Assembly (NCBI GenBank): GCA_020161065.1
Contig: JAIUPH010000018.1
Coordinates: 124,001-188,000 of the forward strand
From: Pseudomonadota bacterium
GTDB lineage: Bacteria; Pseudomonadota; Gammaproteobacteria; Burkholderiales; Burkholderiaceae_C
Direction of reading: 5' to 3'
DNA: 64,000 nucleotides
Shown: positions 6,100-23,747 of the stretch, in pieces
How the letters are laid out: each line of letters opens with the position of its first letter
Position numbering within the stretch: the stretch's first letter is position 1
Position numbers and translations under genes: made by a program
The notes under the pieces: model-generated
What the model saw: the letters and a program-made list of their open reading frames with translations, nothing else
Told to the model about the DNA's origin: nothing
Databases searched by the model: none

Positions 6100-6112
6100 C
6101 GCCCGCGCTCCT

Positions 6113-6880: not shown

Positions 6881-6903
6881 GAGCGTGTCTCCAGGAATGA
6901 ATG

Positions 6904-7231: not shown

Positions 7232-8266
7232 TCAACGCGCCGTGGCCGGCACGCGCCAATGCGCCAGCGGCAGCCCGGCCACCGGCGAGCGGAACCACGG
7301 CAGCGTGTCGCCCGCCAGGCTGCCCAGGTAGACGGTGCGCAGGTCGGGGCCGCCGAAGGCGATGCTGGCCATCATCGGCGCCAGCGTGCCTTTGCACGAG
7401 GCCATCAGCTCCGGCGTCGTCGTGCCGGCCTGGTAGTGCTGCTCGTAGACGGCCAGCGCCGCCGGGTTGCCGTCGTCGAGCAGCGTGAGCAGCTCGCCCT
7501 CGGGCGTCAGCGCCACCAGGCGCTCGGTCAGCACCAGCGTGATCCACAGGTTGCCGGCGGCGTCGATCGCGAAGCCGTCGGGAAAGCCGCCGAGGTCGGC
7601 CGGGCCGTAGGTCTCGCGGCCGTGCAGCGAGCCGTCGGGCCGCACGCGCAGCCGCGAGATGCGGCGCGCGTTGGTCTCGGCGACGTAGAGCCATTCTTCA
7701 CGCGCGTCCAGCCGCAGCTCGTTGGTGCCGACGAAGCCTTCGGCGACGATGCGGATGCCGCGCTCGTCGATCAGCCCGACGTAGCCGTCAGCCGTGCGCG
7801 CGTTGATCGAGCGCGTCCACGGCACCTCGCGCGTGGTCACGGTGAACCAGGTGCGGCCCTTGGAATCGGTCAGCACGAAGTTGGTCTTGCCCAGCGGCCG
7901 GCCGTCGACCTCGCGGTACAGCGTGCGCGAGCGGCCGTCGCGCGTCATCAGCTCGATCGCGTCGGTGCCGAAGTTGGCGATCACGAGGTCGCCGTCGCGG
8001 TTGAAGGCAATGCCGTTGGGCAAGCTGCCGCCCATCACCAGCGATTGCGCGTCGAGCGCGCGGTCGCCCTCGATGCCCGACTGGCGGATCAGCGTCTGCG
8101 TGCCGTCGGCGGCGATCTTCATCACGCCGCGCGCATCGGCCGTCCAGACGCTGCCGTCGGGCTCGCACAGGATGCATTCGGGGCGCTGCAGGTCGCGGCC
8201 CAGCGTGCGGATGGCGGCGCGGTCGACTTGCCAGCCCTTGAGCGGATTGTTTTGCACCGTGGCCAT
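7232..8266 (-). CDS. SMP-30/gluconolactonase/LRE-family lactonase
   Basis: Six-bladed beta-propeller hydrolase expected to open a lactone, 344 aa. The N-terminal metal-ligand Glu is at 30 (LQRPECILCEPDGSVWTAD), and later blades contain FVGTNELRLDAREEWLYVAE and GFPDGFAIDAAGNLWITL, which supply the Asn and Asp ligands of the family. An upstream in-frame ATG at 8344 was rejected because it lies inside the conserved promoter/operator described separately; initiation at 8266 leaves a leader of about 19 nt. First gene of a leftward run into the ABM and Ton genes. Lactone substrates are typical of intradiol or sugar-acid pathways; the true one is unknown. Confidence 0.85.
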   Translation of the reverse strand: MATVQNNPLKGWQVDRAAIRTLGRDLQRPECILCEPDGSVWTADARGVMKIAADGTQTLIRQSGIEGDRALDAQSLVMGGSLPNGIAFNRDGDLVIANFGTDAIELMTRDGRSRTLYREVDGRPLGKTNFVLTDSKGRTWFTVTTREVPWTRSINARTADGYVGLIDERGIRIVAEGFVGTNELRLDAREEWLYVAETNARRISRLRVRPDGSLHGRETYGPADLGGFPDGFAIDAAGNLWITLVLTERLVALTPEGELLTLLDDGNPAALAVYEQHYQAGTTTPELMASCKGTLAPMMASIAFGGPDLRTVYLGSLAGDTLPWFRSPVAGLPLAHWRVPATAR

Positions 8267-8281
8267 GGGGTCCGAGCTTCG

Positions 8282-8350
8282 ATGGCGGCGCATCGTAGGC
8301 AGCGCGCCCGGCTTCGGGAAATCGAATCTGGCGATGCGCCGCATCGCCCG
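8282..8350 (-). promoter_or_regulatory. Composite operator/promoter, copy 1 (upstream of SMP-30 lactonase)
   Basis: A 17-bp perfect palindrome (GCGATGCG-C-CGCATCGC, 8331-8347) is followed on the minus strand by AGATTCGATTTCCC and a -10-like TACGAT (8297-8292). The palindrome centre (8339) is 42 bp from the upstream edge of the -10. The -35 region (TTCCCG) is poor, as expected for an activated promoter. The same layout recurs at 20.6 and 23.6 kb. The divergent LysR gene starts about 100 bp away, and is the likely regulator. Confidence 0.7.
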
Positions 8351-8413
8351 AGCGCATACGTGGGATTACCCTGAACGGCGCCGCACCGGCCGCCCCGCGG
8401 CACGGCGCGCGCC

Positions 8414-8419
8414 TACACT
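8414..8419 (+). promoter_or_regulatory. Possible -10 box for the LysR gene
   Basis: TACACT lies 30 bases upstream of the LysR ATG. No good -35 hexamer is visible, and no Shine-Dalgarno sequence precedes the ATG (a C-rich stretch does), so this is a weak call. Confidence 0.3.
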
Positions 8420-8448
8420 GGCGGCCCGCGAACCCGGCCCCGCCCCCC

Positions 8449-9384
8449 ATGCGCTACCAGCGCCTCGACCTCAACTTGCTGACCGCCTTGCGCGCGCTGC
8501 TGACCGAGCGCAACGTGACGCGCGCCGGCGAGCAGCTTCACGTCTCGCAGCCGGCGATGAGCGGCATGCTGGCGCGGCTGCGCGAGTATTTCGACGACCA
8601 GCTCGTGGTGCCCGTCGGCCGGCGCATGGAACTCACGCCGCTGGGCGAGCAGCTCGTCGAGAAGGTCAACGACCTGATGCTGCGGCTGGACGCCACGCTG
8701 GCCACGCGGCCCGGCTTCGACCCCGCCACCTCGCGCCGGCAGTTCTCGATCGTCGCGTCGGACTACCTGATCCAGGTGCTGCTGCTGGGCGTGCTGCGCG
8801 AGGTGCACGACGAGGCGCCGGGCATCACCATCAGCTTCGCGCAGCCCAGCAACACGGCGGCGGTGGACCTCGAAAACGGCGAGGTCGATTTCGTCATCAA
8901 CCCGGCGCGCTTCGTGACGCCGAACCAGGCCTCGATCGTGCTGTTCGAGGACAGCTACCACCTCGTGGTGGACCCGGCGCACGCGCCGGTCCGCGGCCCG
9001 GTGGACCTCGACCGCTTCATGGCGCTGCGCCACGTCACGCTGGAAAGCAACGGCCGGCCGCAGTTCGAAAGCTGGTTCCTCGCCGAGCACGGCAAGCTGC
9101 CGCAGGCCGACGTGGTGGTGCACAGCTTCGGCATGCTGCCGCAGCTGGTGCTGGGCACCTCGCGCGTGGCCGTGATGCACACGCGCATGGCGCTGCAAAG
9201 CCTGCGCTTCTGGCCGCAGCTGCGCCTGCTGCCCCTGGCCTTCGACGCGCCGCGCCTGGTGGAGACGCTGCAATGGCACCGCTACCGCGACCTCGACCCC
9301 GGCAGCCAATGGCTGCGCGACAAGATGATCGAGCATGCGCAGCGGCTGCCGAAGCCGGAGGCGTTGTTACTTGATCGGGGTTGA
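8449..9384 (+). CDS. LysR-family transcriptional regulator (NodD/NahR-like)
   Basis: DNA-binding regulator, 311 aa. The N-terminal helix-turn-helix (about 8-65) contains LDLNLLTALRALLTERNVT and VSQPAMSGMLARLREYFDD, the pattern of the NodD/NahR/LinR branch that responds to aromatic or flavonoid-like effectors. The effector domain follows (SIVASDYLIQVLLLGVL; VHSFGMLPQLVLGTSRVAVM). It is transcribed divergently from the SMP-30 lactonase gene, a classic LysR arrangement. A palindrome in the shared region recurs before two more operons, so this protein is the prime candidate to control all three. It converges on the SDR operon across a 400-bp repeat-bearing gap. Confidence 0.9.
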   Translation: MRYQRLDLNLLTALRALLTERNVTRAGEQLHVSQPAMSGMLARLREYFDDQLVVPVGRRMELTPLGEQLVEKVNDLMLRLDATLATRPGFDPATSRRQFSIVASDYLIQVLLLGVLREVHDEAPGITISFAQPSNTAAVDLENGEVDFVINPARFVTPNQASIVLFEDSYHLVVDPAHAPVRGPVDLDRFMALRHVTLESNGRPQFESWFLAEHGKLPQADVVVHSFGMLPQLVLGTSRVAVMHTRMALQSLRFWPQLRLLPLAFDAPRLVETLQWHRYRDLDPGSQWLRDKMIEHAQRLPKPEALLLDRG

Positions 9385-9784: not shown

Positions 9785-10575
<791 letters not shown>

Positions 10576-10579
<4 letters not shown>

Positions 10580-11079
10580 CGCGGGCGCCCGCCGAAGGCG
10601 ATGTTGAGGATCGCCGCCTCGCGATCGCGGTTGCGCTGCGCCAGGTCGTCGAGCCGGGTGTCGGCAGTGGCTTGCGCAAAGCCGCCGGCGCGCAGCGCGG
10701 CCAGCAGCTCGTCGGCGCTGCGGCCGGCCAGCGGCGCCACGTCCTTGACGGGCGCCGCCATCACGGCACGCAGCGCCAGCATCGGCGGGCTGGCGCCGGG
10801 GCGTGCCGACGGGTTGGGGATGAAGCTGCAGGCCAGCACGACCAGCGCCACCGCGATGATGGCGCGGCCGCCGCGGTTGTCCAGCACGTGGCGTTTGAAG
10901 GCCGTCCAATTGACCGTGGCGTGCAACGCGACGGCGCCCACCATCACCCAGCTCAGCCACTCGTGCGCCACCTTGTTGAAGCCGCTGTCGAGGTGGAAGA
11001 ACATCAGGATGCCGGTGGTGGCCATCAGCGCGAAGGCGCCCATGGTCAGCGGCGTCGCCCAGTCGCGGGAAAGTCTCAT
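10576..11079 (-). CDS. DUF4405/cytochrome b-like membrane protein
   Basis: Small inner-membrane protein of 167 aa. Three hydrophobic segments are visible: WATPLTMGAFALMATTGIL, a second around EWLSWVMVGAVALHATVNW, and IIAVALVVLACSFI. Histidines at the membrane face of each (FFHLDSG, AHEW, ALHATVNW) match the haem-ligating pattern of DUF4405/cytochrome b561-type domains. It is bracketed by ATGA overlaps with the FAD monooxygenase and the SDR, so it is an integral part of the operon. It could pass electrons between the quinone pool and the operon's redox enzymes; that is inference, and haem binding is unproven. Confidence 0.65.
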
Positions 11080-12209
11080 AGCGGTGCCCTCAGCTTCTCT
11101 TGCGCGTCGCGCATGACCTGCGTGTGTTCGTCGAGCGAGCCGCCCTCGCGTTCGATCTGGCCCATGCGGCCCGAGGCGCTGACGACCAGCCGAGCGCGGT
11201 CGTAGTGGCGGCCGGCATAGGCCAGCAGCGCGCCTTCCAGCGAGTGCCGGCGCGCCAGCTCCTCGGCCAGCACGATGGCGCCTTCCACCGCGATGCCGGC
11301 GCCCGAGGCCAGGTGCGGCGTGGTGGCGTGCACCGTATCGCCCAGCAGCACGATGCGGCCACGGTGCCAGGGCCCGGCGATCATGTGGCCGGCGAGTGGG
11401 CGGTACAGCAGCCGCGCCTCGGGCAGCGCGCCGGCGCGCAGCGCGTCGCGGATCTCGCCGACCTGGCCGCCGAACTCGGCCAGCAGCTCGGCCAGCCTGG
11501 CCGGCCACTGCTCGCGGTCGATGAAGTCCATGCCTTCGCGCTTGTCCAGCACGAACAGGTAGCACTCGGTCTCGCTGATCGGGTTGAGGCCGGCCTTGGT
11601 GGTGCGGCCCATGTAGATGGTGCTGTTGCGGCGCCGGCGCGGCACCACGGCGCGCCACGAGCCCTGGCCGGTGAAGGCCGGGCCGGCAAACGCCGGCAGC
11701 ACCAGCTTGCGCACGGCGGAATGCACGCCGTCGGCGCCGATCACCAGGTCGTAGCGGCCGCGGCTGCCGTCGGTGAACTGCACGTCGACGCCGTCGTCGT
11801 CGGGCGTCATCGCGCTGAAGCTGACGCCCAGCCGCACCTCGGCGCCGGCCGCCTGCACCGCGTGGCCCAGGATGTCGGCCAGCACCGGCCGCATGATGCC
11901 GGCGGCGCCGGGCAGGCCTTCGCCGTCGATCGCCGGCAGCACCGGCACGCTGACTTTCACGCTGCCGTCGGCGCCGCAGACGTCGACCGCGTCCCAGTGG
12001 CCGCCGCGGCGCAGCACTTCGTCGACCACGCCGATGGTGCGCAGCGCGCGCAGCGTGGGGCCGCTGATGGTGATGCCGGCGCCGTCGGGCGCCCAGCTCG
12101 GGTTCTGCTCGACCAGCGTCACCGCGACGCCGAGCTTGCGCAGCTGGATGGCGGCGCACATACCGCCGACGCCGCCGCCGACGATCAGCGCGTTCCCGAT
12201 CAAGGCCAT
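11076..12209 (-). CDS. FAD-dependent aromatic monooxygenase
   Basis: Single-component flavin hydroxylase, 377 aa, of the PHBH-like group that uses NAD(P)H and O2. Dinucleotide-binding GGGVGG is at 11-16, the central motif IGADGVHSAVRK and the FAD-ribityl motif VLLGDTVHATTP are intact, and length is typical of 6-hydroxynicotinate 3-monooxygenase and salicylate hydroxylase relatives. The gene starts 22 bp after the hydrolase stop and overlaps the DUF4405 gene by ATGA. It probably hydroxylates a ring, perhaps with loss of a carboxylate, before cleavage by the VOC protein. Confidence 0.85.
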   Translation of the reverse strand: MALIGNALIVGGGVGGMCAAIQLRKLGVAVTLVEQNPSWAPDGAGITISGPTLRALRTIGVVDEVLRRGGHWDAVDVCGADGSVKVSVPVLPAIDGEGLPGAAGIMRPVLADILGHAVQAAGAEVRLGVSFSAMTPDDDGVDVQFTDGSRGRYDLVIGADGVHSAVRKLVLPAFAGPAFTGQGSWRAVVPRRRRNSTIYMGRTTKAGLNPISETECYLFVLDKREGMDFIDREQWPARLAELLAEFGGQVGEIRDALRAGALPEARLLYRPLAGHMIAGPWHRGRIVLLGDTVHATTPHLASGAGIAVEGAIVLAEELARRHSLEGALLAYAGRHYDRARLVVSASGRMGQIEREGGSLDEHTQVMRDAQEKLRAPL

Positions 12210-12231
12210 GCCGGTCTCCTGTGTTCGTTCG

Positions 12232-13395
12232 TTAGTCGACGTGGCCGCCCAGCACCTCGGCCAGCCAGTCGGCGATGGCGTTGCCGGCGTTGGCCGGGTT
12301 GTCGAGCGAGCTGTGCTCGACGCCGCCGGTGCTGTCGTCGAAGATGTACAAGTCCTTGCGCCGCGCGTTGACCAGTTGGGCGTAGGTCTGATGCGCGTAC
12401 TTCAGCGGGATCTGGCGGTCGTTGGCGCCGTGGGTGACGAGGAAGGGCACGCGGATGCGGTCGAGCACGCCGTTCAGGTGCATGGCTTCGGCCTTGGCGA
12501 GGAAGTCGTCCATGCCCTTGGCGCCGAACACCCATTGCACGTGCTGCCAGTAGTGCGGCACCGGGTTCTCGCCTTCGCGCTGCAGCCGCGCGCGCTGCAC
12601 CTCGCGCCAGTCGTGGTTGGCGCCCCAGACGGCGCCGCAGGCGAAGCGCGGCTCGAAGGCCACGGCCCGCGGGCAGTAGTAGCCGCCCAGCGAGACGCCC
12701 AAGGCGCCGATGCGCTGCGGGTCGACTTCGGCGTGCTGCTGCAGCCAGTCGACCACCGGCGTGGCCCAGGCCTCGCTGTCGGGCACCGCGGGCAGGCCGT
12801 GCAGGCGCAGTGCCTCGCCGGTGCCGGGCTGGTCGATGAACAGCGCGGACACGCCGCGGCGCGCGAACATCGTGCCCATCACGCTTTTCTGCAGCATCTC
12901 CTTGGTGGAGTCGAGCCCGTTCATCACCACGACGATGGGCGCGCGCTGCTCGGGCGGCAGGCCTTCGGCGCGCACGTAGAGGCCGGCGAGCGTGGCGCCG
13001 CGGTACGGCAGCTCGACGCGGCGGCAGTTCTCGCGCGCCAGCCGGCGGCTTTGCTCGAACAGCGCCAGCGAGCGCTTGTACAGCGCCAGCCGGTGCTCGA
13101 AGCCGTGCGCCTGCATGCGCTCGGCGATGGCCAGGTACAGCGCCGCGCGGCCGAGCTTTTCGCCGGCCGACAGCTTGTGGCCGCGAGCGAGGTCGATCTC
13201 GGCCAGCGCCACCAACCGGTCGCCGCCGCCCTTCCAGGCTTCGTAGAAGGCCAGCGTGCCCGGGTCGTCGCCGGCGCGCGCCGCTTCCAGCAGCGGCGCG
13301 CACATCGCGTCGACCTCGCCGATGTTGCCGCCGTGGGTCAGCGCAATCATCGTGGACAGGCTCCACACGTAGTTGGTCGGGAAGTACTGGAACAT
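12232..13395 (-). CDS. Alpha/beta hydrolase of the DHPON-hydrolase/Ayg1 type
   Basis: 387-aa hydrolase with an all-helical N-terminal part (about 1-125) in front of an alpha/beta fold, the build of 2,6-dihydroxypseudooxynicotine hydrolase and fungal Ayg1, which cleave C-C bonds next to a ketone. Catalytic triad: Ser235 in GVSLGG, Asp326 in THGANDRQIP and His361 in GVEHSS. The oxyanion region is VVVMNGLDSTKE. The ATG at 13395 lies 3 bases after the Rieske stop codon, so translation is coupled. This enzyme class inside an aromatic operon points to side-chain or polyketide-like C-C cleavage rather than simple ester hydrolysis. Confidence 0.85.
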   Translation of the reverse strand: MFQYFPTNYVWSLSTMIALTHGGNIGEVDAMCAPLLEAARAGDDPGTLAFYEAWKGGGDRLVALAEIDLARGHKLSAGEKLGRAALYLAIAERMQAHGFEHRLALYKRSLALFEQSRRLARENCRRVELPYRGATLAGLYVRAEGLPPEQRAPIVVVMNGLDSTKEMLQKSVMGTMFARRGVSALFIDQPGTGEALRLHGLPAVPDSEAWATPVVDWLQQHAEVDPQRIGALGVSLGGYYCPRAVAFEPRFACGAVWGANHDWREVQRARLQREGENPVPHYWQHVQWVFGAKGMDDFLAKAEAMHLNGVLDRIRVPFLVTHGANDRQIPLKYAHQTYAQLVNARRKDLYIFDDSTGGVEHSSLDNPANAGNAIADWLAEVLGGHVD

Positions 13396-13397
13396 GG

Positions 13398-13748
13398 TCA
13401 GTCGAAGAGGTTGGGCAGCACGGCCGGCACCCACACGTCGCCGTCGCGCAGCGTCACCGGCACCGGCACCAGCCGCTCGCCGGTGCAGGGGCCGGCGAAG
13501 CACAGGCCGCTGCGGATGTCGAAGTGCGCCGAGTGCGCATAACAGACGATGTGCGAGCCATCGGCGGCCAGGAAGCGGTCTTGCCGGTACTCCAGCGGGC
13601 GGTGCTCGTGCGGGCAGTCGTTGAGGTAGGCGAAGACCTCGTCGCGCTGCCGCACCACGCACAACTGGTCGTCGCCGCCGCGGCGCAGCAGCCCGCGCGA
13701 GCCGCCGTCGGGCAGCTCGTCCAGGCGGCACAGGCGCTGCAGGTTCAT
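13398..13748 (-). CDS. Rieske [2Fe-2S] ferredoxin
   Basis: A 116-aa soluble Rieske protein. Cluster ligands are complete: Cys45-Pro-His47 and Cys69-x2-His72 (CYAHSAHFD), followed by PCTGERLVPVPV, the pattern of BphF/CarAc-type ferredoxins. No ring-hydroxylating oxygenase alpha subunit or ferredoxin reductase lies in the operon. It could serve an oxygenase encoded elsewhere, or donate electrons to a flavoprotein of this operon. Spaced 16 bp from the VOC gene and 2 bp from the hydrolase. Confidence 0.9.
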   Translation of the reverse strand: MNLQRLCRLDELPDGGSRGLLRRGGDDQLCVVRQRDEVFAYLNDCPHEHRPLEYRQDRFLAADGSHIVCYAHSAHFDIRSGLCFAGPCTGERLVPVPVTLRDGDVWVPAVLPNLFD

Positions 13749-13764
13749 CGCGGCCGTCGAACGC

Positions 13765-14697
13765 TCATTCGCCCGGCGCCCACTTCGGCGCGGCGGTGAA
13801 CAGGAAGATCTGCGAGTTGTCCTTGCCCGGCGGGCAGGTGCGCGGCACCCAGGCGTCGTCGTGCAGGTCCATGTCGGCGTCGATCTCCATCACTGCGCCG
13901 AACGGGCTGTTGAAGTACCAGAAGTAGTTGCTGCCCAGGATGTGGCGTCCCGGACCCCAGAAGCTCTTGTAGCCCTTGTCGACGAAGGCCCAGCCGTGCT
14001 GCAGCACTTCCGACGCCGAGCCGAGGTGGAAGGTGAAGTGGTTGCAGCCCACCATGTGCTCGTTGAAGCGCTGGATCATGAAGAGCGTGTGGTGGTCCGC
14101 CGTGCCGGCCGGCCGCATGAAGGGGCCCAGGTTCTCGAAGCGGTCGGTGACGACGAAGCCCAGGCGCGCGTAGAAGGCCTCGGCCTTGGCGACGTCGGGC
14201 ACGAACTGCACCAGGTGGCTCAGCGTGCGCGGCTTGATCACCTCGTCGGGGTTGGCCGCGCAGTCGTTCGGCGCGCGGCCCGGCGGCTGGCCCGGCACGT
14301 TGAAGCCGAGGTGGCGCGCGGTGTAGGGGTGGCGCACGGTGAGCTGGAAGCCGATGGCGAAGCCGCCGTCGTCGATGGTGTGCAGGCTGCCGTCGGCGTC
14401 GACGCGCACCTCGCGGTCGCGGCCCAGCTCGGCGCGGATGGCCGCCAGCGTCGCCGCATCGGCCACGCCGTACACCGTGTCGCGCAGGCAAGGGCTGTGG
14501 GCGCCGGGCGGCAGCGGCGGCAGGCCGGGGTCGTCGTCGCGGCGGATGACGATGCCGGTGCCGTCCAGCGCCGTGAAGTGGCCGCCGGTGGCGGCGTCGA
14601 AGCCTTGCTCGTCGAGGCCGTAGTCCAGCAGGTACTGGCGCGCGGCGGCGAGGTCGTCGACGCCGAAGACGAGGTGGTCGGGTCCGAGGATGTTCAT
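13765..14697 (-). CDS. Two-domain VOC protein, extradiol (catechol 2,3-) dioxygenase-like
   Basis: 310 aa, two glyoxalase-fold modules (1-125 and 158-285). The catalytic half keeps the extradiol metal triad: His161 (LSHLVQF), His220 (CNHFTFHLG) and Glu271 (AVMEIDAD). A further His at 203 or 249 region (TADHHTLF; GRHILG) matches second-shell positions. Expected to open a catechol-like ring next to a hydroxyl using Fe(II) and O2. The start overlaps the DenD-like stop (ATGA). This is the only ring-cleavage candidate in the operon. Confidence 0.85.
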   Translation of the reverse strand: MNILGPDHLVFGVDDLAAARQYLLDYGLDEQGFDAATGGHFTALDGTGIVIRRDDDPGLPPLPPGAHSPCLRDTVYGVADAATLAAIRAELGRDREVRVDADGSLHTIDDGGFAIGFQLTVRHPYTARHLGFNVPGQPPGRAPNDCAANPDEVIKPRTLSHLVQFVPDVAKAEAFYARLGFVVTDRFENLGPFMRPAGTADHHTLFMIQRFNEHMVGCNHFTFHLGSASEVLQHGWAFVDKGYKSFWGPGRHILGSNYFWYFNSPFGAVMEIDADMDLHDDAWVPRTCPPGKDNSQIFLFTAAPKWAPGE

Positions 14698-15638
14698 GCG
14701 GTGGCGCGGCGGATGAGGGTTTCGATGTCGCCGTCGTGGCGCAGGCCGAGGCGTTCGGCCTCCGGCGTGGCCAGCGGCGGGTAGGCGGCGAACAGCCGCT
14801 CGACGAAGGGGTCGGGCGCGTAGCGCACCAGCGCTTTGCGGTCGGCGCCGTGGCGGGCGGCCAGCGCTTCGACCAGCTCGCCGACGCTGAAGCGCAGCAC
14901 CGGCATCTGGTAGCTGCGGCGCGGGTTCAGGCGCACCGGGTCGACGGTGGCTGCATGTAGCAGGTTATCGACGCAGGCGCCGACCGAGATCCACCAGGCC
15001 ACGCCGTCGGCACTGACGGGCACGGTGATGGGCTCGCCGGCGGCCAGCTTCCAGAACAGCTGGCTCATGAAGGCGCTCATCATGCCGGCGCCGTCGCCCG
15101 GCCGCGCCACCACGCCGGGCAGGCGCAGCGAGCAGCCCTGCACCCAGCCCTTGCGCGTGGCGTCGGCGACGAGGTACTCGCCGGCCAGCTTGTGCGCGCC
15201 ATAGCTGAGGCCCGGGTTGGGCAGCGTCGCTTCGTCGACGCGCGGCGGCAGGTGTTCGCCGTAGACCGCGATGGTGCTGGCGAAGACGAAGCGCGGCGCC
15301 GGCGCCCCGCAGCCGCGCAGGTCTTCCAGCAGCCCCAGCGTCGCGTCGAGGTTGATGCGGCGGCCCAGCTCGTAGTCTTTCTCGGCCGCGCCGCCGGGAA
15401 TGCTGGCGAGGTGGAACACGGCGTCCACCGGGTCGCGATAGGCCCGCGCGCGCAAGCCGGGGTCGGCGATGCTGCCGGCCAGCGCCTGCACGCGCGCATC
15501 GGCCGGCGGCGCGGCAAAGCCGATGTCGAGCAGCGTCAGCTTGCCGATCGGCTGGCCGCCCAGGCCATCGGCCAGCAGGCGCTGCACCAGTTGGCGGCCG
15601 ACGAAGCCTTCGCTGCCGGTGACGACGACGTGCGTCAT
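14694..15638 (-). CDS. NAD-dependent epimerase/dehydratase family, DenD-like dehydrogenase
   Basis: Extended SDR, 314 aa. Rossmann motif GSEGFVG at 8-14; active-site Thr122 with Tyr146 and Lys150 (YGAHK). The segments FHLASIPGGAAEKDYELGRR and TIAVYG resemble D-erythronate dehydrogenase DenD, which oxidises a C2 hydroxyl of an acid sugar. Overlaps both neighbours by 4 bp. In this operon it more likely oxidises a hydroxy acid freed from the aromatic substrate; that is inference. The exact substrate is unknown. Confidence 0.8.
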   Translation of the reverse strand: MTHVVVTGSEGFVGRQLVQRLLADGLGGQPIGKLTLLDIGFAAPPADARVQALAGSIADPGLRARAYRDPVDAVFHLASIPGGAAEKDYELGRRINLDATLGLLEDLRGCGAPAPRFVFASTIAVYGEHLPPRVDEATLPNPGLSYGAHKLAGEYLVADATRKGWVQGCSLRLPGVVARPGDGAGMMSAFMSQLFWKLAAGEPITVPVSADGVAWWISVGACVDNLLHAATVDPVRLNPRRSYQMPVLRFSVGELVEALAARHGADRKALVRYAPDPFVERLFAAYPPLATPEAERLGLRHDGDIETLIRRATA

Positions 15639-17500
15639 CGGCCGCCCCCCTTGCGAAACGGCAGCGTCGCCAGGAAGGCCAGCCGCGTCCAGCCCAGCAG
15701 CTTGAGGCCGGCGCGCGCCGAGCTGGCGTCCAGCCGCGCTGCCATCGGCATCGTGCCGAAGCTCTTGCCCTTGATCACCAGTTCGTCGCCGACGCGCTCG
15801 ATCGCTTCCACGTGCATCAACTCTTCGTCGGCCGGGCCGCGCAGCACCATGCCTGGCGCCGCGCTCGCGGCCGGCGCCGCCGGGGCGACGTTGGGGTTGG
15901 CGCCGTCGTGGCGCACGCCGACGGCGACGCTGCCGAAGTCCATGCCCAGCGCCTCGAACATCTTGATCGCGGTGGCGCGGCCGGCGCCGTAGACGCCGCC
16001 GCCCGGGTGCTGGAACGGGCCCGCGAGGAACAATCGCTCGACGCCGGGCACCGTGAACTGGCCCAGCTCGGCCGTCGGCCGCGCGCCGGCGCTCTGGTGG
16101 AAGTACGGCGCCACGCCGTGCAGGTCGCCGCGCACCATGCTGTTGGGGCTGGAGCGCTCGATGTCGACCGGGCTCACGATGCTGCGCGCGACGATGTTGT
16201 CGGCCGTCAGGTTGCTGACGAAGCGGCGGTAGTGGGCGAGCGAGAGGTCGCCGATTTCTTCCTTGAACTCGTCCCAGTGCTTGCCGGCCCAGCGCGGGTC
16301 GGTCACCTGGTAGGGCGCGAATGTGATGCCGTGGAACATGCCCGCGCCGGCGGGCACGCGGCTCTTGTCGCCGATGCTTTCGTCGCCGCCGGCGCACAGC
16401 CGGCGCGCCGTGACCAGGCCGCGCTTCAGGTCGTCGAAGTCGGCGATCATGTCGTCGAGCCGGTCGGTCGCCATGAACTCCAGCATCGTGGCATAACCCA
16501 CTTCTTCGCCGGCGTAGTAGCGGCAGGGCTGCTTCAGGTCGTAGTGGCTGACCATGATGGAAAACGGCGCCAGCTGCGTGCGCTCGGCCTTCTTCAGCAC
16601 GGGCTCGGGCACGCCTTGCACGAACTTGCGCACCACGTGCGGGTGGATGGCGCCGATCACGCCATCGCGCGCGGCGATGGTCTCGCCGTCGGTCAGGCGC
16701 ACGCCGCTGGCGCGGCCGCCGCTGGTGGTGATCTGCGCCACCTCGGCGTTGCAGCGCACTTCGCCGCCATGGCTTTCGATGCAGCGCACCAGCGCCTCGG
16801 TCAGCTTGCCGCTGCCGCCCACCGGCTGGCTGACGCCGTAGGTGTGGATGATGCCGGGCATCAGCAGCACGCCCATGCCGGTGCCCAGCTCGTTGGGGTG
16901 CTGCAGGTTCTCGCTGACCAGGCGCAGCAGGTGGATCTTGATCTTGTCCGATTCGTAGAGGTCGTTGACGAGGCTCAGGCAATCGCGCGTCATGTACTCC
17001 AGCATCAGCCGGCCTTCGTCGCTGCGGTCGAGCATGGCCACCAGCTCGCCCAGCGGCGGCGGCGGCGCGTAGAGGCCGGGCATGAAGACCTTCAGCACCT
17101 CGGCGCTCATCGCGACGAAGCGGCGATAGGTCTCGGCGTCCTTGGCGCTGACCTTGGCGAACCCCTCGCAGGTCTTGTCGACGTCCTTGTAGGTGAACAG
17201 CACCGACTGGTCGGGGAAGATCGTCGCGTGCGGCACCGGCGAGTAGTGGTAGTCCAGCCCGTGCTTGGACAGCAGCCCCAGCTCGTCCTGCCGGATCATC
17301 GGGTTGCCCTGGATCATGATGTGCACGCTGGAGTGCTCGTCATGCCAGTAGCCCGGGGTGTTGAGCTGGCGCGTGCTGACGCCGCCGCCCGGCCAGGCCT
17401 TGCGTTCCAGCACCAGCACCTTCTTGCCGGCCTTGGCCAGGTAGGCGGCGGCGACCAGGCCGTTGTGGCCGGCGCCCATCGCGACGATGTCGTAGGTCAT
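15635..17500 (-). CDS. Phytoene-dehydrogenase-like FAD oxidoreductase (CrtI/COG1233 type)
   Basis: Large FAD flavoprotein, 621 aa. An N-terminal dinucleotide fold (VAMGAGHNGLVAAAYLAKAG, then LERKAWPGGG) and the C-terminal FAD-closing motif (LFLAGPFQHPGGGVYGAGR) identify the CrtI/RetSat/amine-oxidase group. A C-terminal tail of about 90 residues (after 530), Ala/Pro-rich then basic, extends beyond the usual fold. Overlaps the FAH gene and the DenD-like gene by ATGA. Such proteins desaturate or oxidise hydrophobic substrates; with an alicyclic or reduced-ring substrate this enzyme could aromatise it. Confidence 0.82.
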   Translation of the reverse strand: MTYDIVAMGAGHNGLVAAAYLAKAGKKVLVLERKAWPGGGVSTRQLNTPGYWHDEHSSVHIMIQGNPMIRQDELGLLSKHGLDYHYSPVPHATIFPDQSVLFTYKDVDKTCEGFAKVSAKDAETYRRFVAMSAEVLKVFMPGLYAPPPPLGELVAMLDRSDEGRLMLEYMTRDCLSLVNDLYESDKIKIHLLRLVSENLQHPNELGTGMGVLLMPGIIHTYGVSQPVGGSGKLTEALVRCIESHGGEVRCNAEVAQITTSGGRASGVRLTDGETIAARDGVIGAIHPHVVRKFVQGVPEPVLKKAERTQLAPFSIMVSHYDLKQPCRYYAGEEVGYATMLEFMATDRLDDMIADFDDLKRGLVTARRLCAGGDESIGDKSRVPAGAGMFHGITFAPYQVTDPRWAGKHWDEFKEEIGDLSLAHYRRFVSNLTADNIVARSIVSPVDIERSSPNSMVRGDLHGVAPYFHQSAGARPTAELGQFTVPGVERLFLAGPFQHPGGGVYGAGRATAIKMFEALGMDFGSVAVGVRHDGANPNVAPAAPAASAAPGMVLRGPADEELMHVEAIERVGDELVIKGKSFGTMPMAARLDASSARAGLKLLGWTRLAFLATLPFRKGGGR

Positions 17501-18477
17501 GCGAACGGCACGAAGCGGTGGTCCACGGCGCCGAAGATGCTCTGCCCGTCGGCGCCGAAGACCTCGAAGCGCAGGCGGTCGCCGATCTTCAGGAACGGCG
17601 TCGTCGAGTCGCCGTGCTCGATCTTCTCCAGCGCGCGCTTCTCGGCCAGGCAGGCCGAGCCCACAGTGCGCGCGGCGCGGTTGGACACCGTGCCGCTGCC
17701 CAGGATGGTGCCGGCGCGCAGGTTGCGGCTCTTGCCCAGGTGCGCGAGCAGTTCGCCCCAGGACCAGTCCATCTCGCGCCCGTTGGGGTGGCCGAAGGCA
17801 TGGCCGTTGCGGCTGACCTGCAGGTCGAGGTGGATGCGGCCGTCGTCGCCCCACGCGGCGCCCAGTTCGTCGGGCGTCACCGCCACCGGCGCGAACGCCG
17901 TCGCCGGCTTGGCGTTGATGAAGCCGAAGCCCATCTGCAGCTCGCGGAACAGGTGGGCGCGCAGGCTGACGTCGTTGAGGATGGTCACCAGCCGGATCTT
18001 CGCGGCGCAGGCCGCCGGCGTAGCGGCCATCGGCGTGTCGTCGACGATGACCGCGAACTCGCCTTCGAAGTCGCCATTGTCGGCCTCGATCAGCGGGTAG
18101 TCGTCGGTCGGGCCGCAGAAGTCGTCGCTCTGGCGCTGCACCAGCACCGGGATGCCCGGCGTCTTCTTGACGTCGAGGTCGTAGGCCTGCTCCATGATGT
18201 TGCCGTGGTTCAGGAAGGCCGAGGCGTCGACGAACTGGTGCGTGCGCGGCAGCGGCGCGGCGCACTGCGCGGGGTCGAAGGCGAAGGCCTGCGGCACGCG
18301 GCCTTCGTTGAGCTGCGCGTACAGCGCCTGCAGCGCCGGGGCGCGGGCGTCCCAGTCCTCGATCAGCTGCTGCATCGTCGCGGCCAGCGGCGCCGCGTCG
18401 ACGGCGCGGCGCAGGTCGCGCGAGACCAGCACCAGGCGGCCGTCGCGGCTGCCGTTCTTCAGGGTGGCGAGTTTCAT
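17497..18477 (-). CDS. Fumarylacetoacetate hydrolase-family protein
   Basis: 326-aa C-C bond hydrolase/decarboxylase family member. Metal-binding acids are visible in DFEGEFAVIVDD (Glu-x-Glu) and VTILNDVSLR, with the family's RNLRAGTILGSGTVSNR loop. Typical of enzymes acting on acylpyruvates or 2-hydroxy-dienoates after ring cleavage. Begins 25 bp downstream of the SDR gene stop; its stop overlaps the CrtI-like start. Consistent with a step just after the VOC dioxygenase. Confidence 0.87.
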   Translation of the reverse strand: MKLATLKNGSRDGRLVLVSRDLRRAVDAAPLAATMQQLIEDWDARAPALQALYAQLNEGRVPQAFAFDPAQCAAPLPRTHQFVDASAFLNHGNIMEQAYDLDVKKTPGIPVLVQRQSDDFCGPTDDYPLIEADNGDFEGEFAVIVDDTPMAATPAACAAKIRLVTILNDVSLRAHLFRELQMGFGFINAKPATAFAPVAVTPDELGAAWGDDGRIHLDLQVSRNGHAFGHPNGREMDWSWGELLAHLGKSRNLRAGTILGSGTVSNRAARTVGSACLAEKRALEKIEHGDSTTPFLKIGDRLRFEVFGADGQSIFGAVDHRFVPFA

Positions 18478-18502
18478 CGCGGGGGTCTCCTCGGGTAACG
18501 GG

Positions 18503-19270
18503 TCATGCCAACGGCCGGCCGCCGTCGACCGGGATCACCGCGCCGGTGCTGAAGCTCAACAGCGTGGCCGCGGCGACGACGGCGGCGGCCACCTCGTCGG
18601 GCAGCGCCAGGCGCTGCAGCGGCGTGCGCGCCGCTTGCTCGTCGCGCCAGGCGCGGTCCATGCGCTTGACGAAGTCGGTGTCGGACAGGCCGGGCGCGAC
18701 GCTCAGCACCCGCACCGCCGGCGCCAGCGCGCGCGCCAGCGACTTGGTGAGGTTGTCCACCGCCGCCTTCGACGCGCAGTAGGCGACGTTGCTGCCCATC
18801 GCGGTGACGGCGGCGATCGACGACAGGTTGACGACGAGGCCGCTGCCGCCGCCTGCGCGCGGCGCCGCCAGCAGCGGCTTGAAGGCGCGCACCGCGGCGA
18901 TGATGCCGCGCACGTTGGTGGCCAGGATCTCGTCGATCAGCGCGTCGTCCAGCGCGTCGAGGTCGGCGTGCGGCACGAAGCGCGTGGTGCCGGCGCCGTT
19001 GACCAGGATGTCGCAGCGCCCCCAGCGGCGGCCCACCTCGGCGGCCAGCGCGGCCAGCGCCGCCGAATCGGTGACCGGGCAGTGCAGCGCGGCGTGCGGC
19101 AGCGCGGCGGCCGGCAGCCGCGCGGCCAGCGCATGGGCCTGCGCTTCCGACCGGTGGTAGCCCACCACCACCGCGCAGCCGGCGCGCGCCAGGCCCAGGC
19201 AGATGGCTTCGCCCAGGCCGCCGGCGCCGCCGCTGACGACGGCCAGCCGGCCGCTCAGATCCAGCGTCAT
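18503..19270 (-). CDS. Short-chain dehydrogenase/reductase
   Basis: 255-aa NAD(P)-dependent oxidoreductase. Cofactor motif SGGAGGLG at 13-20, NGAG at 91-94, catalytic Ser150/151, Tyr164 and Lys168 (YCASK), C-terminal GAVIPVDGG. It starts only one base after the HisD-like stop codon. A second SDR lies at the far end of the same operon; they are not close copies, so two different hydroxyl groups may be oxidised. Confidence 0.9.
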   Translation of the reverse strand: MTLDLSGRLAVVSGGAGGLGEAICLGLARAGCAVVVGYHRSEAQAHALAARLPAAALPHAALHCPVTDSAALAALAAEVGRRWGRCDILVNGAGTTRFVPHADLDALDDALIDEILATNVRGIIAAVRAFKPLLAAPRAGGGSGLVVNLSSIAAVTAMGSNVAYCASKAAVDNLTKSLARALAPAVRVLSVAPGLSDTDFVKRMDRAWRDEQAARTPLQRLALPDEVAAAVVAAATLLSFSTGAVIPVDGGRPLA

Positions 19271-19271
19271 G

Positions 19272-20555
19272 TCAGGCCGGCTGGAAGCGCCGCACGCGGA
19301 TGTCGGCCTGCTCCTTGTGGCCGCTCATGTGCTCGTAGCCGCACAGGCGCGAGCAGTATTCGCCGACCATCACGCTGGCCTGGTCGGTCAGCACGCGCTG
19401 GTAGGTGTGCGTCTTGATGAACTTGCCGACCCACAGCCCGCCGGTGTAGCGGCCGGCGCCTTGCGTCGGCAGCGTGTGGTTGGTGCCGATCACCTTGTCG
19501 CCATAGCTCACGTTGGTGCGGTGGCCGAGGAACAGCGCGCCGTAGCGCGTCATGCGCTGCAGGAACCAGTCGGGGTCGGCGGTCATCACCTGCACGTGCT
19601 CGGAGCACAAGCGCTCGGCCTCCTGCAGCATCTCTTCCTGCGTGTCGCAGAGGATGATCTCGCCGTAGTCGCGCCACGAGACGGCGGCCACCGCGCGCGT
19701 GTCCAGCCGCGCCAGCACGGTCTCGATGGCGGCCGGCAGTTCGGCGGCGATCTTCGCGCTGCGCGTGATGCAGTAGGCCGGGCTGGTGGGGCCGTGCTCG
19801 GCCTGGCCCAGCAGGTCGACGGCGACCAGCTCGGCGTCGACCGTGTCGTCGCAGATGACCATCGTCTCGGTCGGCCCCGCGAAGAGGTCGATGCCGACGC
19901 GGCCGAACAGCTGGCGCTTGGCTTCGGCGACGTAGGCGTTGCCGGGGCCGACGATCATGTCGACGGCCGCGATACTCTCGGTGCCCAGCGCCATCGCCGC
20001 GATGGCCTGCACGCCGCCCAGGCAGTAGATCTCGTCGGCGCCGGCCAGGTGCATGGCGGCCACGATCTCGGCGCAGGGCTTGCCTTCGAACGGCGGCGCG
20101 GCGGCGATGACGCGCGGCACGCCGGCCACCTTGGCGGTGAGCACGCTCATGTGGGCCGAGGCGATCAGCGGGTACTTGCCGCCGGGGATGTAGCAGCCGA
20201 CCGAGTTGACCGGGATGTTGCGGTGGCCCAGCACCACGCCGGGCAGCGTCTCGACCTCGACGTCCTTCATCGAGTCGCGCTGGATCTGCGCGAAGCGGCG
20301 GATCTGCGCCTGCGCGAAGCGGATGTCGTCCAGCGTGCGCGCCGGCAGGCTGGCGATGCAGGCGTCGATCTCCGCCTGGCTCAGGCGCAGGGTGGCGGGC
20401 GACCAGTGGTCGAACTTCGCGCTGTATTCGCGCACGGCGGCGTCGCCGCGCGTTTCGATGTCGCGCAGGATGGCTTCCACGGTGCTGCGCACCTGCGCCT
20501 GGAGGTCGGCCTTGGCCGCGGCGGGCTTGCCTTGCTTGAGATGCTGGACGGTCAC
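19272..20555 (-). CDS. Histidinol-dehydrogenase-family enzyme, HpsN-like
   Basis: 427-aa Zn- and NAD-dependent dehydrogenase that would oxidise a primary alcohol to a carboxylate in two steps. All four Zn ligands of HisD are kept: Gln251, His254 (LGQAEHGP), Asp353 ([14 protein letters not shown]) and His413 (MSGHKEQAD). No his operon is nearby, and the sequence [18 protein letters not shown] is that of catabolic relatives such as sulfopropanediol dehydrogenase HpsN. The GTG at 20555 was chosen because GGAG lies 9 bases upstream; an in-frame ATG further up overlaps the -10 box. First gene of the big operon. Confidence 0.85.
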
Positions 20556-20589
20556 GGCGAAAGGCTCCGGTGGTCTCGAATGTCCGATG

Positions 20590-20652
20590 GCGGCCATGCT
20601 AGGCAGCGCCCCCGGCCTTGGGAAATCGTTTGTGCCGATACGGCGCATCGGG
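20590..20652 (-). promoter_or_regulatory. Composite operator/promoter, copy 2 (upstream of HisD-like operon)
   Basis: Imperfect 15-bp palindrome CGATACG-G-CGCATCG at 20636-20650 (one mismatch), then CGATTTCCCA and -10-like TAGCAT (20601-20596) on the minus strand. Palindrome centre (20643) to -10 distance is 42 bp, identical to the copies at 8.3 and 23.6 kb. A predicted start site near 20589 gives a 34-nt leader. Confidence 0.7.
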
Positions 20653-20680
20653 CGGCGCAATGCCTGCGCCGCGCCTGCCG

Positions 20681-21127: not shown

Positions 21128-21131
21128 GCCG

Positions 21132-23528
21132 TCAGTCGAAGTTGACCGAGAAGCGCAGGCCGGCGTAGCGCCGCGCATCGCGCGCCGGCTGGCCGATCAC
21201 CGCGTTGGCGGTGCTGCCCCACAGGCCGCTGAAGAAGTCTTCGGCGTTGACGAGGTAGAAGCGGTTGAACAGGTTGTTGACGAACAGGCCCACCGAGTAC
21301 TTGCCGTCGGGCGACGAGGCGGTGGCGCCGATGTTCATCAAGCCATAGGCCGGCTGCAGCGTCTTCGGGTTCTGGTTGGCCTGCAGGTTGGCCTTGGTGC
21401 GGTAGGCGTACTGCGCGTTCAGCCGCAGCTCCCAGGGCAGCCATTGCTGCTGCAGCACATGCTCGATGCCGAGCACCAGCTTGAGCTTGGACGAATCGGG
21501 CATGGTCTTGCCCGACAGGTCTTGCGTGCCGAACCAGGTGGACGGGTCGGCCGGGTTCGGCTGGTTCACGGTGCAGCCGTCGGTCTGGCCCGGGTAGCAG
21601 GGCGCGCCGCCGAAGCGCAGGAACTTGGCATCGATGTAGGCGGCGCTGAAGTTCACGCGCGTGTCGTCGCCGGCGGCGAGCATGCCGTCGAGTTCCAGCC
21701 CCCGCGTGCGCGCGCGCCCGGCGCTCGACAGGATCAGGTTGTTGACGTAGCCGCCGCCGACGTTGTCGAAGATCTGCACCTGGTAGTTCTTGTACTCGGT
21801 GTTGAACAGCGCCGTGTTGAGCGTGAGCTTGCCGCCCAGCAGCGTGAACTTCGAGCCCAGCTCGAAGTGGTTGATCTTCTCCTGCTCCACCGGCGCCAGC
21901 GGGTCGTTGTTCTGCAGCGTGGCCGCGGTGTTGTAGGCGCGCGGCTTGTAGCCGCGCGAGAAGGTGGCGTAGGCCATCTGGTCCTTGCCCAGCTTCTGGC
22001 GCAGCGTGAGGTCGCCGACCACGGTGTGCGAGGTGTCGCTGCCGCTGGAGGCCAGCGCGTGGGCGTGGTCGTCGATGCGGTACTCGATGCGGTCGCGATT
22101 CGCGCGCAGGCCGGCCAGCACGCTGGTGGCCTCGCCCAGCGTCCAGGTGCCGCGGCCGTAGAGGCCCAGGCTTTGCGTCTGCGAGCGCACGGTGTCGATC
22201 TTCGGGTTCACGAACATCAGCCGGTTCCAGTCCTGCGTGACGTCGACATCGGAGTAGAACAGCCCGGCGACATAGCTCAGCGGCTGGTTCAGCGGCGAGG
22301 CGATCTTGAACTCCTGCGTCACCGAGGTCGGCTCGATCCTGATGCGCTGCTCGTTGTAGTAGTACGGCGGCCCGCCGTCGGCCGGCGTCGGCAGCGGGCC
22401 GCGCAGGTCGTTCAAGAAGTAGGTGGCGACGATGGGCACGTCCTGCAGGTTGTTCTGCCGGTTGGACATGCGCGCCGTGGTCGAGGTGAAGGTGTAGTCG
22501 CCGAAGCGCTTCTCGATGTTGAGGCTGAGGTCGCGGTCGCGCGTTTCCGACTGCATGCGCACCGGCGACGCGTACTCGGTGTTGCCGTAGCCGGGCGTGA
22601 CGCCGCCCAGCGCCGTGGCCTGGCTCTGGCCGTGGCCGCCGTTCCAGGGGAAGAACGGGAACAGCTCGGCGCCCGGCGTCAGGTACTGGTAGGTGAAGGT
22701 GCCGCCGTCGGACGTGCCGTCGGCGACGCGCGCCGTCAGCGTGAGGTCCAGCGTCTTGTCGGGGCTGAGCATCAGCTTGGCGCGCGCGCCGCGCGACTTC
22801 GATTGCGATGGCTCGTCGAGCAGCACGTTGCGGATCGGATATTCGCGCCGCGAGCCATACAGCGACAGGCTGTAGGCCAGCATCTCGCCGGCCGGCCCGG
22901 TGACGAACAGGTTGCCGCGGTATTCGTGGTCGTCGGTCAGCGTGAAGCCGGCGCTGCCGCTGAAGCTGCGCGATGGCTGCTGCGTCACGAAGTTGATGAC
23001 GCCGGCCGATGCCGTGCGACCGCCCAGCGTCGACTGCGGGCCCTTCAGCACCTCGACGCGGCGCACGTCGGCGAGGTCGTTGGCGGCGGTGGAGTCCGAC
23101 GGCACCGGCACGCCGTCGATCATGATCGAGACGCCCGAGGTCAGGCCGATCGCCGCCTCGTTGGCCGTCGTCGAGATGCCGCGCATCGAGTACGGCACGC
23201 GGCCGTTGAACGAGCCCTTCAACTGCACCGAGGGCACGAGGTTGTTGATGTCGGAGATGTCGGTCGCGTTGGCCTTCTCCAGCACCTCGGACGACATCAC
23301 CGAGGCGGCCACCGGCGTGTCCTTCAGCCGCTCGACGCGCTTTTGCGAGGTGATCACCACCTCCTGCAGCACCGGCGCGGCGGCCGATGCGGCGCTGGCC
23401 GGCGCCGTCGCGGGGGCCGTCGCGGGGGTCGTCTGCGCAAAGCCGGCGGCCGGCCAGCCGAGGGCGGCCAGCACGGCCAACGCAATGGGGGCGTGGCGGG
23501 GGCGGGCAAGGGTCGTGGTCCGGCTCAT
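21132..23528 (-). CDS. TonB-dependent outer-membrane receptor
   Basis: Complete receptor, 798 aa. Signal peptide ends near WPAAGFAQ; then a short Thr/Ala-rich stretch, TonB-box-like LQEVVITSQKR, plug domain (VRRVEVLKGPQSTLGGRTAS) and a long barrel ending in the aromatic residue FSVNFD. ATG at 23528 has GGAGA 5 bases upstream. Preceded by the same operator/promoter as the SMP-30 and HisD-like operons. The sequence resembles receptors paired with aromatic or terpenoid catabolism in sphingomonads more than siderophore receptors; no siderophore genes are nearby. Confidence 0.93.
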   Translation of the reverse strand: MSRTTTLARPRHAPIALAVLAALGWPAAGFAQTTPATAPATAPASAASAAAPVLQEVVITSQKRVERLKDTPVAASVMSSEVLEKANATDISDINNLVPSVQLKGSFNGRVPYSMRGISTTANEAAIGLTSGVSIMIDGVPVPSDSTAANDLADVRRVEVLKGPQSTLGGRTASAGVINFVTQQPSRSFSGSAGFTLTDDHEYRGNLFVTGPAGEMLAYSLSLYGSRREYPIRNVLLDEPSQSKSRGARAKLMLSPDKTLDLTLTARVADGTSDGGTFTYQYLTPGAELFPFFPWNGGHGQSQATALGGVTPGYGNTEYASPVRMQSETRDRDLSLNIEKRFGDYTFTSTTARMSNRQNNLQDVPIVATYFLNDLRGPLPTPADGGPPYYYNEQRIRIEPTSVTQEFKIASPLNQPLSYVAGLFYSDVDVTQDWNRLMFVNPKIDTVRSQTQSLGLYGRGTWTLGEATSVLAGLRANRDRIEYRIDDHAHALASSGSDTSHTVVGDLTLRQKLGKDQMAYATFSRGYKPRAYNTAATLQNNDPLAPVEQEKINHFELGSKFTLLGGKLTLNTALFNTEYKNYQVQIFDNVGGGYVNNLILSSAGRARTRGLELDGMLAAGDDTRVNFSAAYIDAKFLRFGGAPCYPGQTDGCTVNQPNPADPSTWFGTQDLSGKTMPDSSKLKLVLGIEHVLQQQWLPWELRLNAQYAYRTKANLQANQNPKTLQPAYGLMNIGATASSPDGKYSVGLFVNNLFNRFYLVNAEDFFSGLWGSTANAVIGQPARDARRYAGLRFSVNFD

Positions 23529-23589
23529 CTCGTCTCCGTATGCTGGTTCTTGGGGTCCAACGGCCGCCGCCATGGCGCCGCGGCGGGCG

Positions 23590-23652
23590 GGTCGGATGCT
23601 AAGAAGCGCCCCCGCGCGCCACCAATCGAATCTGGCGATGCGCCGCATCAGC
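23590..23652 (-). promoter_or_regulatory. Composite operator/promoter, copy 3 (upstream of TonB receptor)
   Basis: Perfect palindrome GATGCG-C-CGCATC (23637-23649), then on the minus strand GCCAGATTCGATT as in copy 1, and -10-like TAGCAT (23601-23596). Centre-to--10 distance is again 42 bp. Over the palindrome and the next 14 bases copies 1 and 3 are identical although the spacer toward -10 differs, so the shared part is likely the protein-binding site. Confidence 0.72.
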
Positions 23653-23747
23653 GCCGGGCATGGTTGGCCCTGGAAAACCACTAGGCGCGCCGATGGCCCA
23701 CGGCCGTTTGTGCGACAGTCGCCGCCACTCAGCGGAGGTGCCTCGCG

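What the first reader, a model, noticed from the sequence alone, without database searches (positions are those of the whole stretch)
8266..23652. Three operons share one palindrome-plus-promoter element: a probable LysR regulon
The element GATGCGsCGCATC occurs upstream of the SMP-30/Ton operon (8331-8347), the HisD-like operon (20636-20650, one mismatch) and the TonB-receptor operon (23637-23649). In all three the palindrome centre is exactly 42 bp from the upstream edge of a TAnnAT -10 box, with poor -35 boxes. Copies 1 and 3 also share the next 13-14 bases. The divergent LysR gene at 8449 is the only regulator in the island. Such exact spacing in three places is unlikely by chance and ties together uptake, energy coupling and catabolism.
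Basis: partly seen in the sequence, partly recalled or inferred. Interest (0 to 1): 0.8.

Follow-up and report, generated by a model that had tools for sequence, protein, structure and literature searches.

The report
One LysR regulator, three matching promoters
Three gene groups for taking up and breaking down an unidentified, possibly aromatic, compound carry the same two-part docking site for one neighbouring regulator protein; the layout recurs in relatives, so this is a newly mapped example of a well-known type of bacterial gene control.

Summary
Three copies lie at 8292-8357, 20596-20661 and 23596-23661 (minus strand). In each, the palindrome centre is 42 bp before a TAnnAT box. The palindrome alone is common (159 places with up to one mismatch in the genome), but the 54-nt composite occurs exactly three times. 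A profile built only from other species' copies ranks these three first genome-wide, at 56, 53 and 51 bits against 30 for the next hit.

The palindrome is not the operator itself. It is the junction of two T-N11-A LysR boxes: ATnn-N7-nnAT, 7 bp, then ATCG-N7-CGAT in these copies. Their centres are 22 bp apart, 53 and 31 bp before the -10 box, so about -65 and -43 from the inferred start. The E. coli GcvA repeats are reported at the same positions (PMC5002191).

The element tracks the LysR gene: it occurs near 55-77% orthologues, before SMP-30, MFS, TonB-receptor, HisD-like and other genes. Complete arrays at exactly this spacing stand beside 22 of 49 LysR homologues of at least 36.9% identity, and at almost no other spacing.

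Binding, inducer and start sites are unproven.

The parts
8343..8357 (-). Distal LysR box (IR1), ATGC-N7-CGAT, centre 53 bp before the -10, SMP-30 promoter
8321..8335 (-). Proximal LysR box (IR2), ATCG-N7-CGAT, centre 31 bp before the -10, SMP-30 promoter
8292..8297 (-). -10-like box TACGAT of the SMP-30 promoter
   Evidence: first T, A and last T invariant in 16 of 16 strong copies
20647..20661 (-). Distal LysR box (IR1), HisD-like promoter
20625..20639 (-). Proximal LysR box (IR2), ATCG-N7-CGAT, HisD-like promoter
20596..20601 (-). -10-like box TAGCAT, HisD-like promoter
23647..23661 (-). Distal LysR box (IR1), TonB-receptor promoter
23625..23639 (-). Proximal LysR box (IR2), ATCG-N7-CGAT, TonB-receptor promoter
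23596..23601 (-). -10-like box TAGCAT, TonB-receptor promoter
8449..9384 (+). LysR-type regulator, proposed to bind all three elements; divergent from SMP-30
   Evidence: HTH_1 and LysR_substrate domains; nearest solved relatives are LysR-type regulatory proteins, 1.5e-29
7232..8266 (-). SMP-30/gluconolactonase-like protein, first gene behind element 1
   Evidence: PF08450; start supported by orthologue alignments that begin at residue 6 or 7
3234..7060 (-). Probable continuation of the operon: ExbB/TolQ-like (6113-7060), two ExbD (5665-6099, 5211-5642), a protein without family match where a TonB would be expected (4516-5214), MFS transporter (3234-4460)
   Evidence: transcript unity inferred from strand and spacing
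19272..20555 (-). HisD-superfamily dehydrogenase, closest in the PDB to sulfopropanediol 3-dehydrogenase; first gene behind element 2
11076..19270 (-). Probable continuation of the HisD operon: SDR, FAA hydrolase, CrtO/CrtI-like flavoprotein (15635-17455), D-erythronate-dehydrogenase-like, VOC, S9-type hydrolase, FAD monooxygenase-like
   Evidence: transcript unity inferred
21132..23528 (-). TonB-dependent receptor behind element 3 (a VOC protein, ORF 20681-21178, follows)
   Evidence: PF00593 and PF07715

Best explanation
The LysR-type protein encoded at 8449-9384 binds, probably as a tetramer (dimer of dimers), to two 15-bp T-N11-A boxes upstream of each of three operons. The distal box (ATnn-N7-nnAT) is centred near -65 and the proximal box (ATCG-N7-CGAT) near -43; they are 22 bp apart, about two helical turns, on one face of the DNA. 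By eye the -35 region is poor, so contact from the inducer-bound proximal dimer should switch on the SMP-30/Exb/MFS, HisD-like catabolic and TonB-receptor operons together. At 8292-8357 the distal part also lies towards the divergent lysR promoter, where binding would repress lysR. Shown by sequence: three elements unique in the genome, their geometry, conservation and co-occurrence with this LysR. Inferred: binding, activation, tetramer, inducer, autoregulation, start sites, operon unity.
For: Exactly three composite copies in 6.29 Mb. A model built from 13 copies of other species ranks the three first at 56.2, 52.7 and 50.9 bits; next are two sites in the island of the closest paralogue (49%) on contig C16 at 29.7 and 20.8. 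In 399 genomes drawn from the family no site outside the three genomes with a LysR of at least 75% exceeds 34 bits, while the copies in those three, all within about 22 kb of that LysR, score 44 to 67 (those eight are model members, so only the absence elsewhere is informative). AT at -11/-10, read in the three window copies and expected from mirror symmetry, is present in 16 of 16 strong copies. Full arrays in 22 of 49 divergent regions at the true spacing, 16 of them beside homologues of 36.9-50% that played no part in defining the key positions; 78 of 80 altered spacings give 0, the others 1 and 2. Orthologous promoters in G353 (SMP-30, HisD, TonB receptor) keep promoter-specific variants, by eye, so the copies are not a recent duplication. 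A Massilia putida plasmid cluster with 81% HisD and 66% SMP-30 but only a 37% LysR has no element.
Against: No binding, expression or start-site data. The 13 outside copies were themselves found by their likeness to the window copies, so the held-out test is not fully independent. 21 of 49 homologues lack an array of 10 or more, and 3 of the 9 above 50% identity do so (L049 8, L083 6, L100 6 of 11). The loci are related, some nearly identical, so counts are not independent trials. The 16 strong copies were chosen by score. In G353 one strong copy (L137:966-1031) does not stand before a recognisable gene. The Massilia LysR at 37% is no more distant than some homologues that do have arrays, so that case is weak. 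Proximal boxes carry more column information than distal ones (23.8 against 14.3 bits), the reverse of the order reported for GcvA/MetR.
Confidence: 0.85

Rival explanations
1. The elements are bound by another regulator, such as the other LysR homologue about 14 kb left of the window (41%) or the two-component response regulator at 2520-3215, and the divergent LysR is a bystander.
For: Both exist. In G353 another LysR homologue (41%) lies between two elements.
Against: The other LysR's own divergent region (L102) holds only 8 of 11 key positions and no profile hit up to E 1. The Sphaerotilus hippei-like G229, two Ideonella and a Comamonadaceae MAG carry the element in the intergenic region of this LysR. 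T-N11-A geometry does not suit an OmpR-type direct-repeat site (recalled).
Confidence: 0.07
2. The elements are sites of this LysR but work mainly by repression without inducer, the strong proximal box blocking RNA polymerase.
For: The proximal box is the more constrained one, and LTTRs are described as repressors or activators depending on box position (PMC5002191, passages).
Against: Poor -35 boxes (by eye) and the -65/-43 geometry match the activated GcvA-type promoter (PMC5002191).
Confidence: 0.1
3. The palindrome is chance codon-like sequence and the shared spacing a coincidence or a recent copy-paste.
For: The palindrome with up to one mismatch is frequent: 159 places.
Against: Composite found only at the three sites; model from other species; spacing control; promoter-specific variants preserved in G353.
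Confidence: 0.01

Closest known systems
E. coli GcvA and MetR two-box promoters (LTTR 'group one' of Oliver et al. 2016, PMC5002191; passages and section 15 seen)
   Same: Divergent regulator, two 15-bp inverted repeats, for GcvA centred at -65 and -43, the proximal one adjacent to the -35 box.
   Different: Different half-sites (ATCG/CGAT here); three target operons on one island; the proximal box carries more information here, whereas that paper finds IR1 the more conserved.
Catabolic LTTRs with a regulatory and an activation site, e.g. BhbR1 of Pigmentiphaga kullae (PMC12016517, passages seen)
   Same: T-N11-A box near -65 and a second box overlapping the -35, catabolic operon control.
   Different: There DNase I footprints and an inducer are known; here neither. 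The second box there is a low-affinity, irregular site.
BsrA of Pseudomonas aeruginosa (PMC8407307, passages seen)
   Same: Best-scoring NCBIfam model for this LysR; T-N11-A box.
   Different: 135.8 bits against a cut-off of 480; BsrA has 765 bound regions in that paper, this LysR appears to have three strong sites.

Membership tests
LysR-type transcriptional regulator regulon | Regulator with HTH_1 and LysR substrate domain | tested here: met
   PF00126 and PF03466 above cut-off
LysR-type transcriptional regulator regulon | Divergent arrangement with a target operon | tested here: met
   LysR 8449 + and SMP-30 8266 -, element between them
LysR-type transcriptional regulator regulon | T-N11-A inverted-repeat box | tested here: met
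   Two per promoter, 16 of 16 strong copies
LysR-type transcriptional regulator regulon | Direct binding of the regulator to the boxes | not testable with these tools
   Needs EMSA or footprint
LTTR 'group one' (GcvA/MetR) architecture | Two inverted repeats centred near -65 and -43 from the start site | tested here: inconclusive
   Centres 53 and 31 bp before the first base of the -10, which gives -65 and -43 if the start is 12 bp further; start not mapped
LTTR 'group one' (GcvA/MetR) architecture | Distal repeat more conserved than proximal | tested here: not met
   14.3 bits distal, 23.8 bits proximal; dyad pairs about equal (4.0 and 3.9 of 7)
BsrA equivalog | NCBIfam NF050187 cut-off 480 bits | tested here: not met
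   135.8 bits

The most novel reading that the evidence does not exclude
A whole LysR subfamily, spread over many genera of one Burkholderiales family and at least one gammaproteobacterium, uses one rigid 66-bp control cassette: four half-sites (13, 9 and 13 bp apart) plus a -10 box at a fixed distance. Individual clades change only the inner half-site bases together with their recognition helix, and the usual affinity order is reversed, with the stronger box next to the promoter. Each regulator copy then collects several operons by the same cassette.
Probability: 0.35. Interest if true: 0.55.

Novelty: new member of a known kind. Interest (0 to 1): 0.42.

Why it matters
It gives a concrete three-promoter regulon, with boxes predicted to single-base resolution, for a catabolic island whose substrate is unknown: a compound that induces all three promoters through this LysR would point to the substrate. 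It also offers a natural series of about twenty regulator/operator pairs at identical spacing (some nearly identical) for studying LysR half-site recognition. And it shows how a conspicuous palindrome can be the seam between two operators rather than an operator.

Tried and rejected
Palindrome as the operator: rejected. The GCG/CGC core varies between species while the AT, GAT, ATC and CGAT half-sites hardly do. Palindrome count alone as proof: rejected. First composite pattern had a spacer one base too long and found nothing; corrected. Recent duplication: not supported, since G353 keeps promoter-specific variants. Element tied to the catabolic genes rather than to LysR: not supported in the one case tested (Massilia putida). 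Naming the substrate: the enzymes suggest an aromatic or lactone-forming compound but no defined pathway. A paper search for the gene set (5 of 6 terms) gave 0 papers. One search gave no solved relative of the FAD monooxygenase-like protein at 1e-25. Passages of PMC6449761 on LysR regulation of aromatic metabolism did not mention SMP-30 or TonB genes.

Rows dropped before counts: BLAST hits starting after residue 8 of the query, shorter than 200 aligned residues or with under 150 bases upstream were left out, and 80 regions became 73 after removing duplicates; the 49 are those of at least 36.9% identity. The 16 strong copies were picked by score out of 26 listed; the ten weaker ones were left out of the column counts. 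Of the 26, 25 have AT at -11/-10; L087 lacks the A. In one search, 88 of 399 genomes had a hit with up to 2 mismatches; of 17 listed hits with at most one, 9 are in the four genomes with a LysR of 55% or more and 8 are one recurring 26-mer (GATGGTGTTCATCGCCAGCTTCGATT) in 8 other genomes, whose gene context was not examined.
Full report
What was checked. The palindrome centre is 42 bp before the first base of TAnnAT in all three. The palindrome itself is weak evidence: with up to one mismatch it occurs at 159 places in the 6.29 Mb genome, 8 exactly. The shared sequence is much longer. The 54-nt composite GATGCGNCGNATCGNCANANNCGATT-N11-GGNGCGCTNCNTANNAT with up to three mismatches occurs three times in the genome, all here, none in the reversed control. 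An earlier version with a miscounted spacer found nothing.

Relatives. In 399 genomes drawn from the family, orthologues of 77 (G353), 75 (G229) and 55% (G397) were found. A scan of named genomes gave 75% in Sphaerotilus hippei (Burkholderiales), 74% in a Comamonadaceae MAG, 69 and 71% in two Ideonella and 59% in three MAGs, two of which gave identical element scans. S. hippei is very probably G229, whose contig has the same length. Strong copies of the element stand before SMP-30 in G353, L077, L078, L079 and L080; before MFS and the TonB receptor in L081; before HisD and the TonB receptor in G353; before an SDR and a periplasmic binding protein in L080; and about 290 bp before a flavoprotein in L082, the near-identical locus to L081. 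G397 has weaker copies, one before an MFS orthologue; L083 has only a weak one (20.4 bits).

What the element is. Sixteen strong copies align without gaps over 66 columns. Invariant are AT at -11/-10, ATG at 2-4, ATC at 11-13, ATT at 24-26, TA at 49-50 and T at 54. This makes two 15-bp T-N11-A boxes, -11 to 3 and 11 to 25, with centres 22 bp apart, 53 and 31 bp before the -10. With a start 12 bp after the first base of the -10, they lie near -65 and -43. The AT at -11/-10 had been read in the three window copies and expected from symmetry before the columns were counted (note, counts).

Tests of specificity. A profile of all 16 copies ranks the three window sites first in the genome (61.3, 59.7, 58.9 bits, by construction); next come two sites in an island on contig C16 with a 49% LysR paralogue and paralogues of SMP-30 and the S9-type hydrolase (28.3 and 20.5), then partial matches at 17.7 and below. 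A profile made without the window copies gives the same five places on top: 56.2, 52.7, 50.9, 29.7, 20.8, then 16.6. The outside copies had been found by likeness to the window copies, so this is a check on ranking and on the absence of further sites rather than a fully independent prediction. In the 399 family genomes, searched with stricter filters that lose some weak matches, 20 hits reach 1e-4. Eight score 44 bits or more, all in G353, G000 and G229, all within about 22 kb of a LysR orthologue of at least 75%, and all members of the model; the point is that nothing else exceeds 34. Of the 12 weaker hits, two are in G397 (55% orthologue), one is the C16 site, one (G131) is about 7 kb from a partial LysR match of 51%, and one (G116, L171) has a LysR homologue within its 3-kb locus; for the other seven none was seen within 3 kb (loci L162-L177 and L115 only).

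Architecture across the subfamily. Divergent upstream regions of 73 distinct LysR homologues were scored on 11 key positions. Of 49 with at least 36.9% identity, 22 hold all 11 and 28 hold 10 or more; of the 24 below, 2 and 3. Six of the 22 are beside regulators above 50%, which carry copies that defined the key positions; the other 16, of 40, do not. When the box-box and box-to-promoter distances were varied by up to 4 bp each, 78 of 80 altered spacings gave no full array and the other two gave 1 and 2, against 22 at the true spacing. One full array is in the gammaproteobacterium Parathalassolituus penaei. Misses include 3 of the 9 regions above 50% (L049, L083, L100); in G353 (L049) the SMP-30 gene lies about 4 kb away and carries a full copy there. 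Several loci are nearly identical, so these numbers are not independent trials.

Who binds. Among 31 regulators with an array of 10 or more, those with Ser-Gly in the recognition helix have G at element position 23 in 7 of 10, those with Ser-Asn in 0 of 20, and one Ser-His has G (hand count; the helix position is recalled from LysR structures). This fits direct recognition but is not corrected for phylogeny. The other LysR homologue near the window does not carry the array. A Massilia putida plasmid cluster with closely related enzymes (HisD 81%, SDR 74%) and a 37% LysR lacks the element. So in this one case the element does not follow the enzymes.

Mechanism. By analogy with published two-box LysR promoters (PMC5002191: GcvA repeats at -65 and -43; PMC12016517: T-N11-A site near -65 plus a site overlapping the -35; passages seen), the most likely working is activation of all three operons by an inducer-bound LysR tetramer. 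The reversed order of information (proximal 23.8, distal 14.3 bits) is unusual for that group and may mean tighter proximal binding, but dyad matches do not differ, so I hold this loosely. Inducer unknown. The operons combine an outer-membrane receptor, energy-coupling genes, an MFS transporter, a lactonase-like protein, an HpsN-like dehydrogenase (name recalled for sulfopropanediol 3-dehydrogenase), FAA hydrolase, VOC proteins and flavoproteins, which fits uptake and breakdown of an aromatic or lactone-forming compound.

Verdict. It is a new member of a known kind, with a subfamily-wide rigid cassette as the most interesting extension. After checking, confidence was lowered slightly (0.86 to 0.85) because the family-wide high scores are model members.

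Noticed in passing
G000 contig C16, L104:10149-10202 and 13374-13427: A paralogous island with a 49% LysR, SMP-30, S9-type hydrolase and FAA hydrolase paralogues carries two weaker copies of the same element, before the SMP-30 and the hydrolase gene.
   Followed up: partly
window 8362-8371 and orthologous intergenic regions (L077, L078, L079, L080, L096): A GGG-N4-CCC-like box (GGGATTACCC in the window) just outside the distal LysR box on the lysR side recurs in several SMP-30/lysR intergenic regions; unexplained.
   Followed up: no
L137:966-1031 (G353): A very strong element (61.9 bits) points towards the 3' end of another LysR gene with no recognisable target gene, only a 104-aa ORF.
   Followed up: partly
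window 19272-20555: The HisD-like protein is closer to sulfopropanediol 3-dehydrogenase structures (9.6e-116) than to histidinol dehydrogenases (3.5e-75).
   Followed up: partly
window 15635-17455: A 606-aa flavoprotein resembling CrtO/CrtI carotenoid enzymes (below their cut-offs) sits inside the catabolic operon.
   Followed up: partly
window 1439-3215: Histidine kinase and OmpR-type response regulator on the same strand just beyond the MFS gene.
   Followed up: no
divergent regions of Ser-Asn-type LysR homologues, e.g. L063, L066, L071, L073, L087: A short conserved stretch (CTCTCGTCAACC or CTCTCGCTAACC) overlaps the end of the -10 box and follows it in several of the more distant homologues.
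   Followed up: no
L178 (Massilia putida plasmid NZ_CP019037.1): A plasmid-borne relative of the catabolic cluster (HisD 81%, SDR 74%, SMP-30 66%) with a different LysR and no element.
   Followed up: yes
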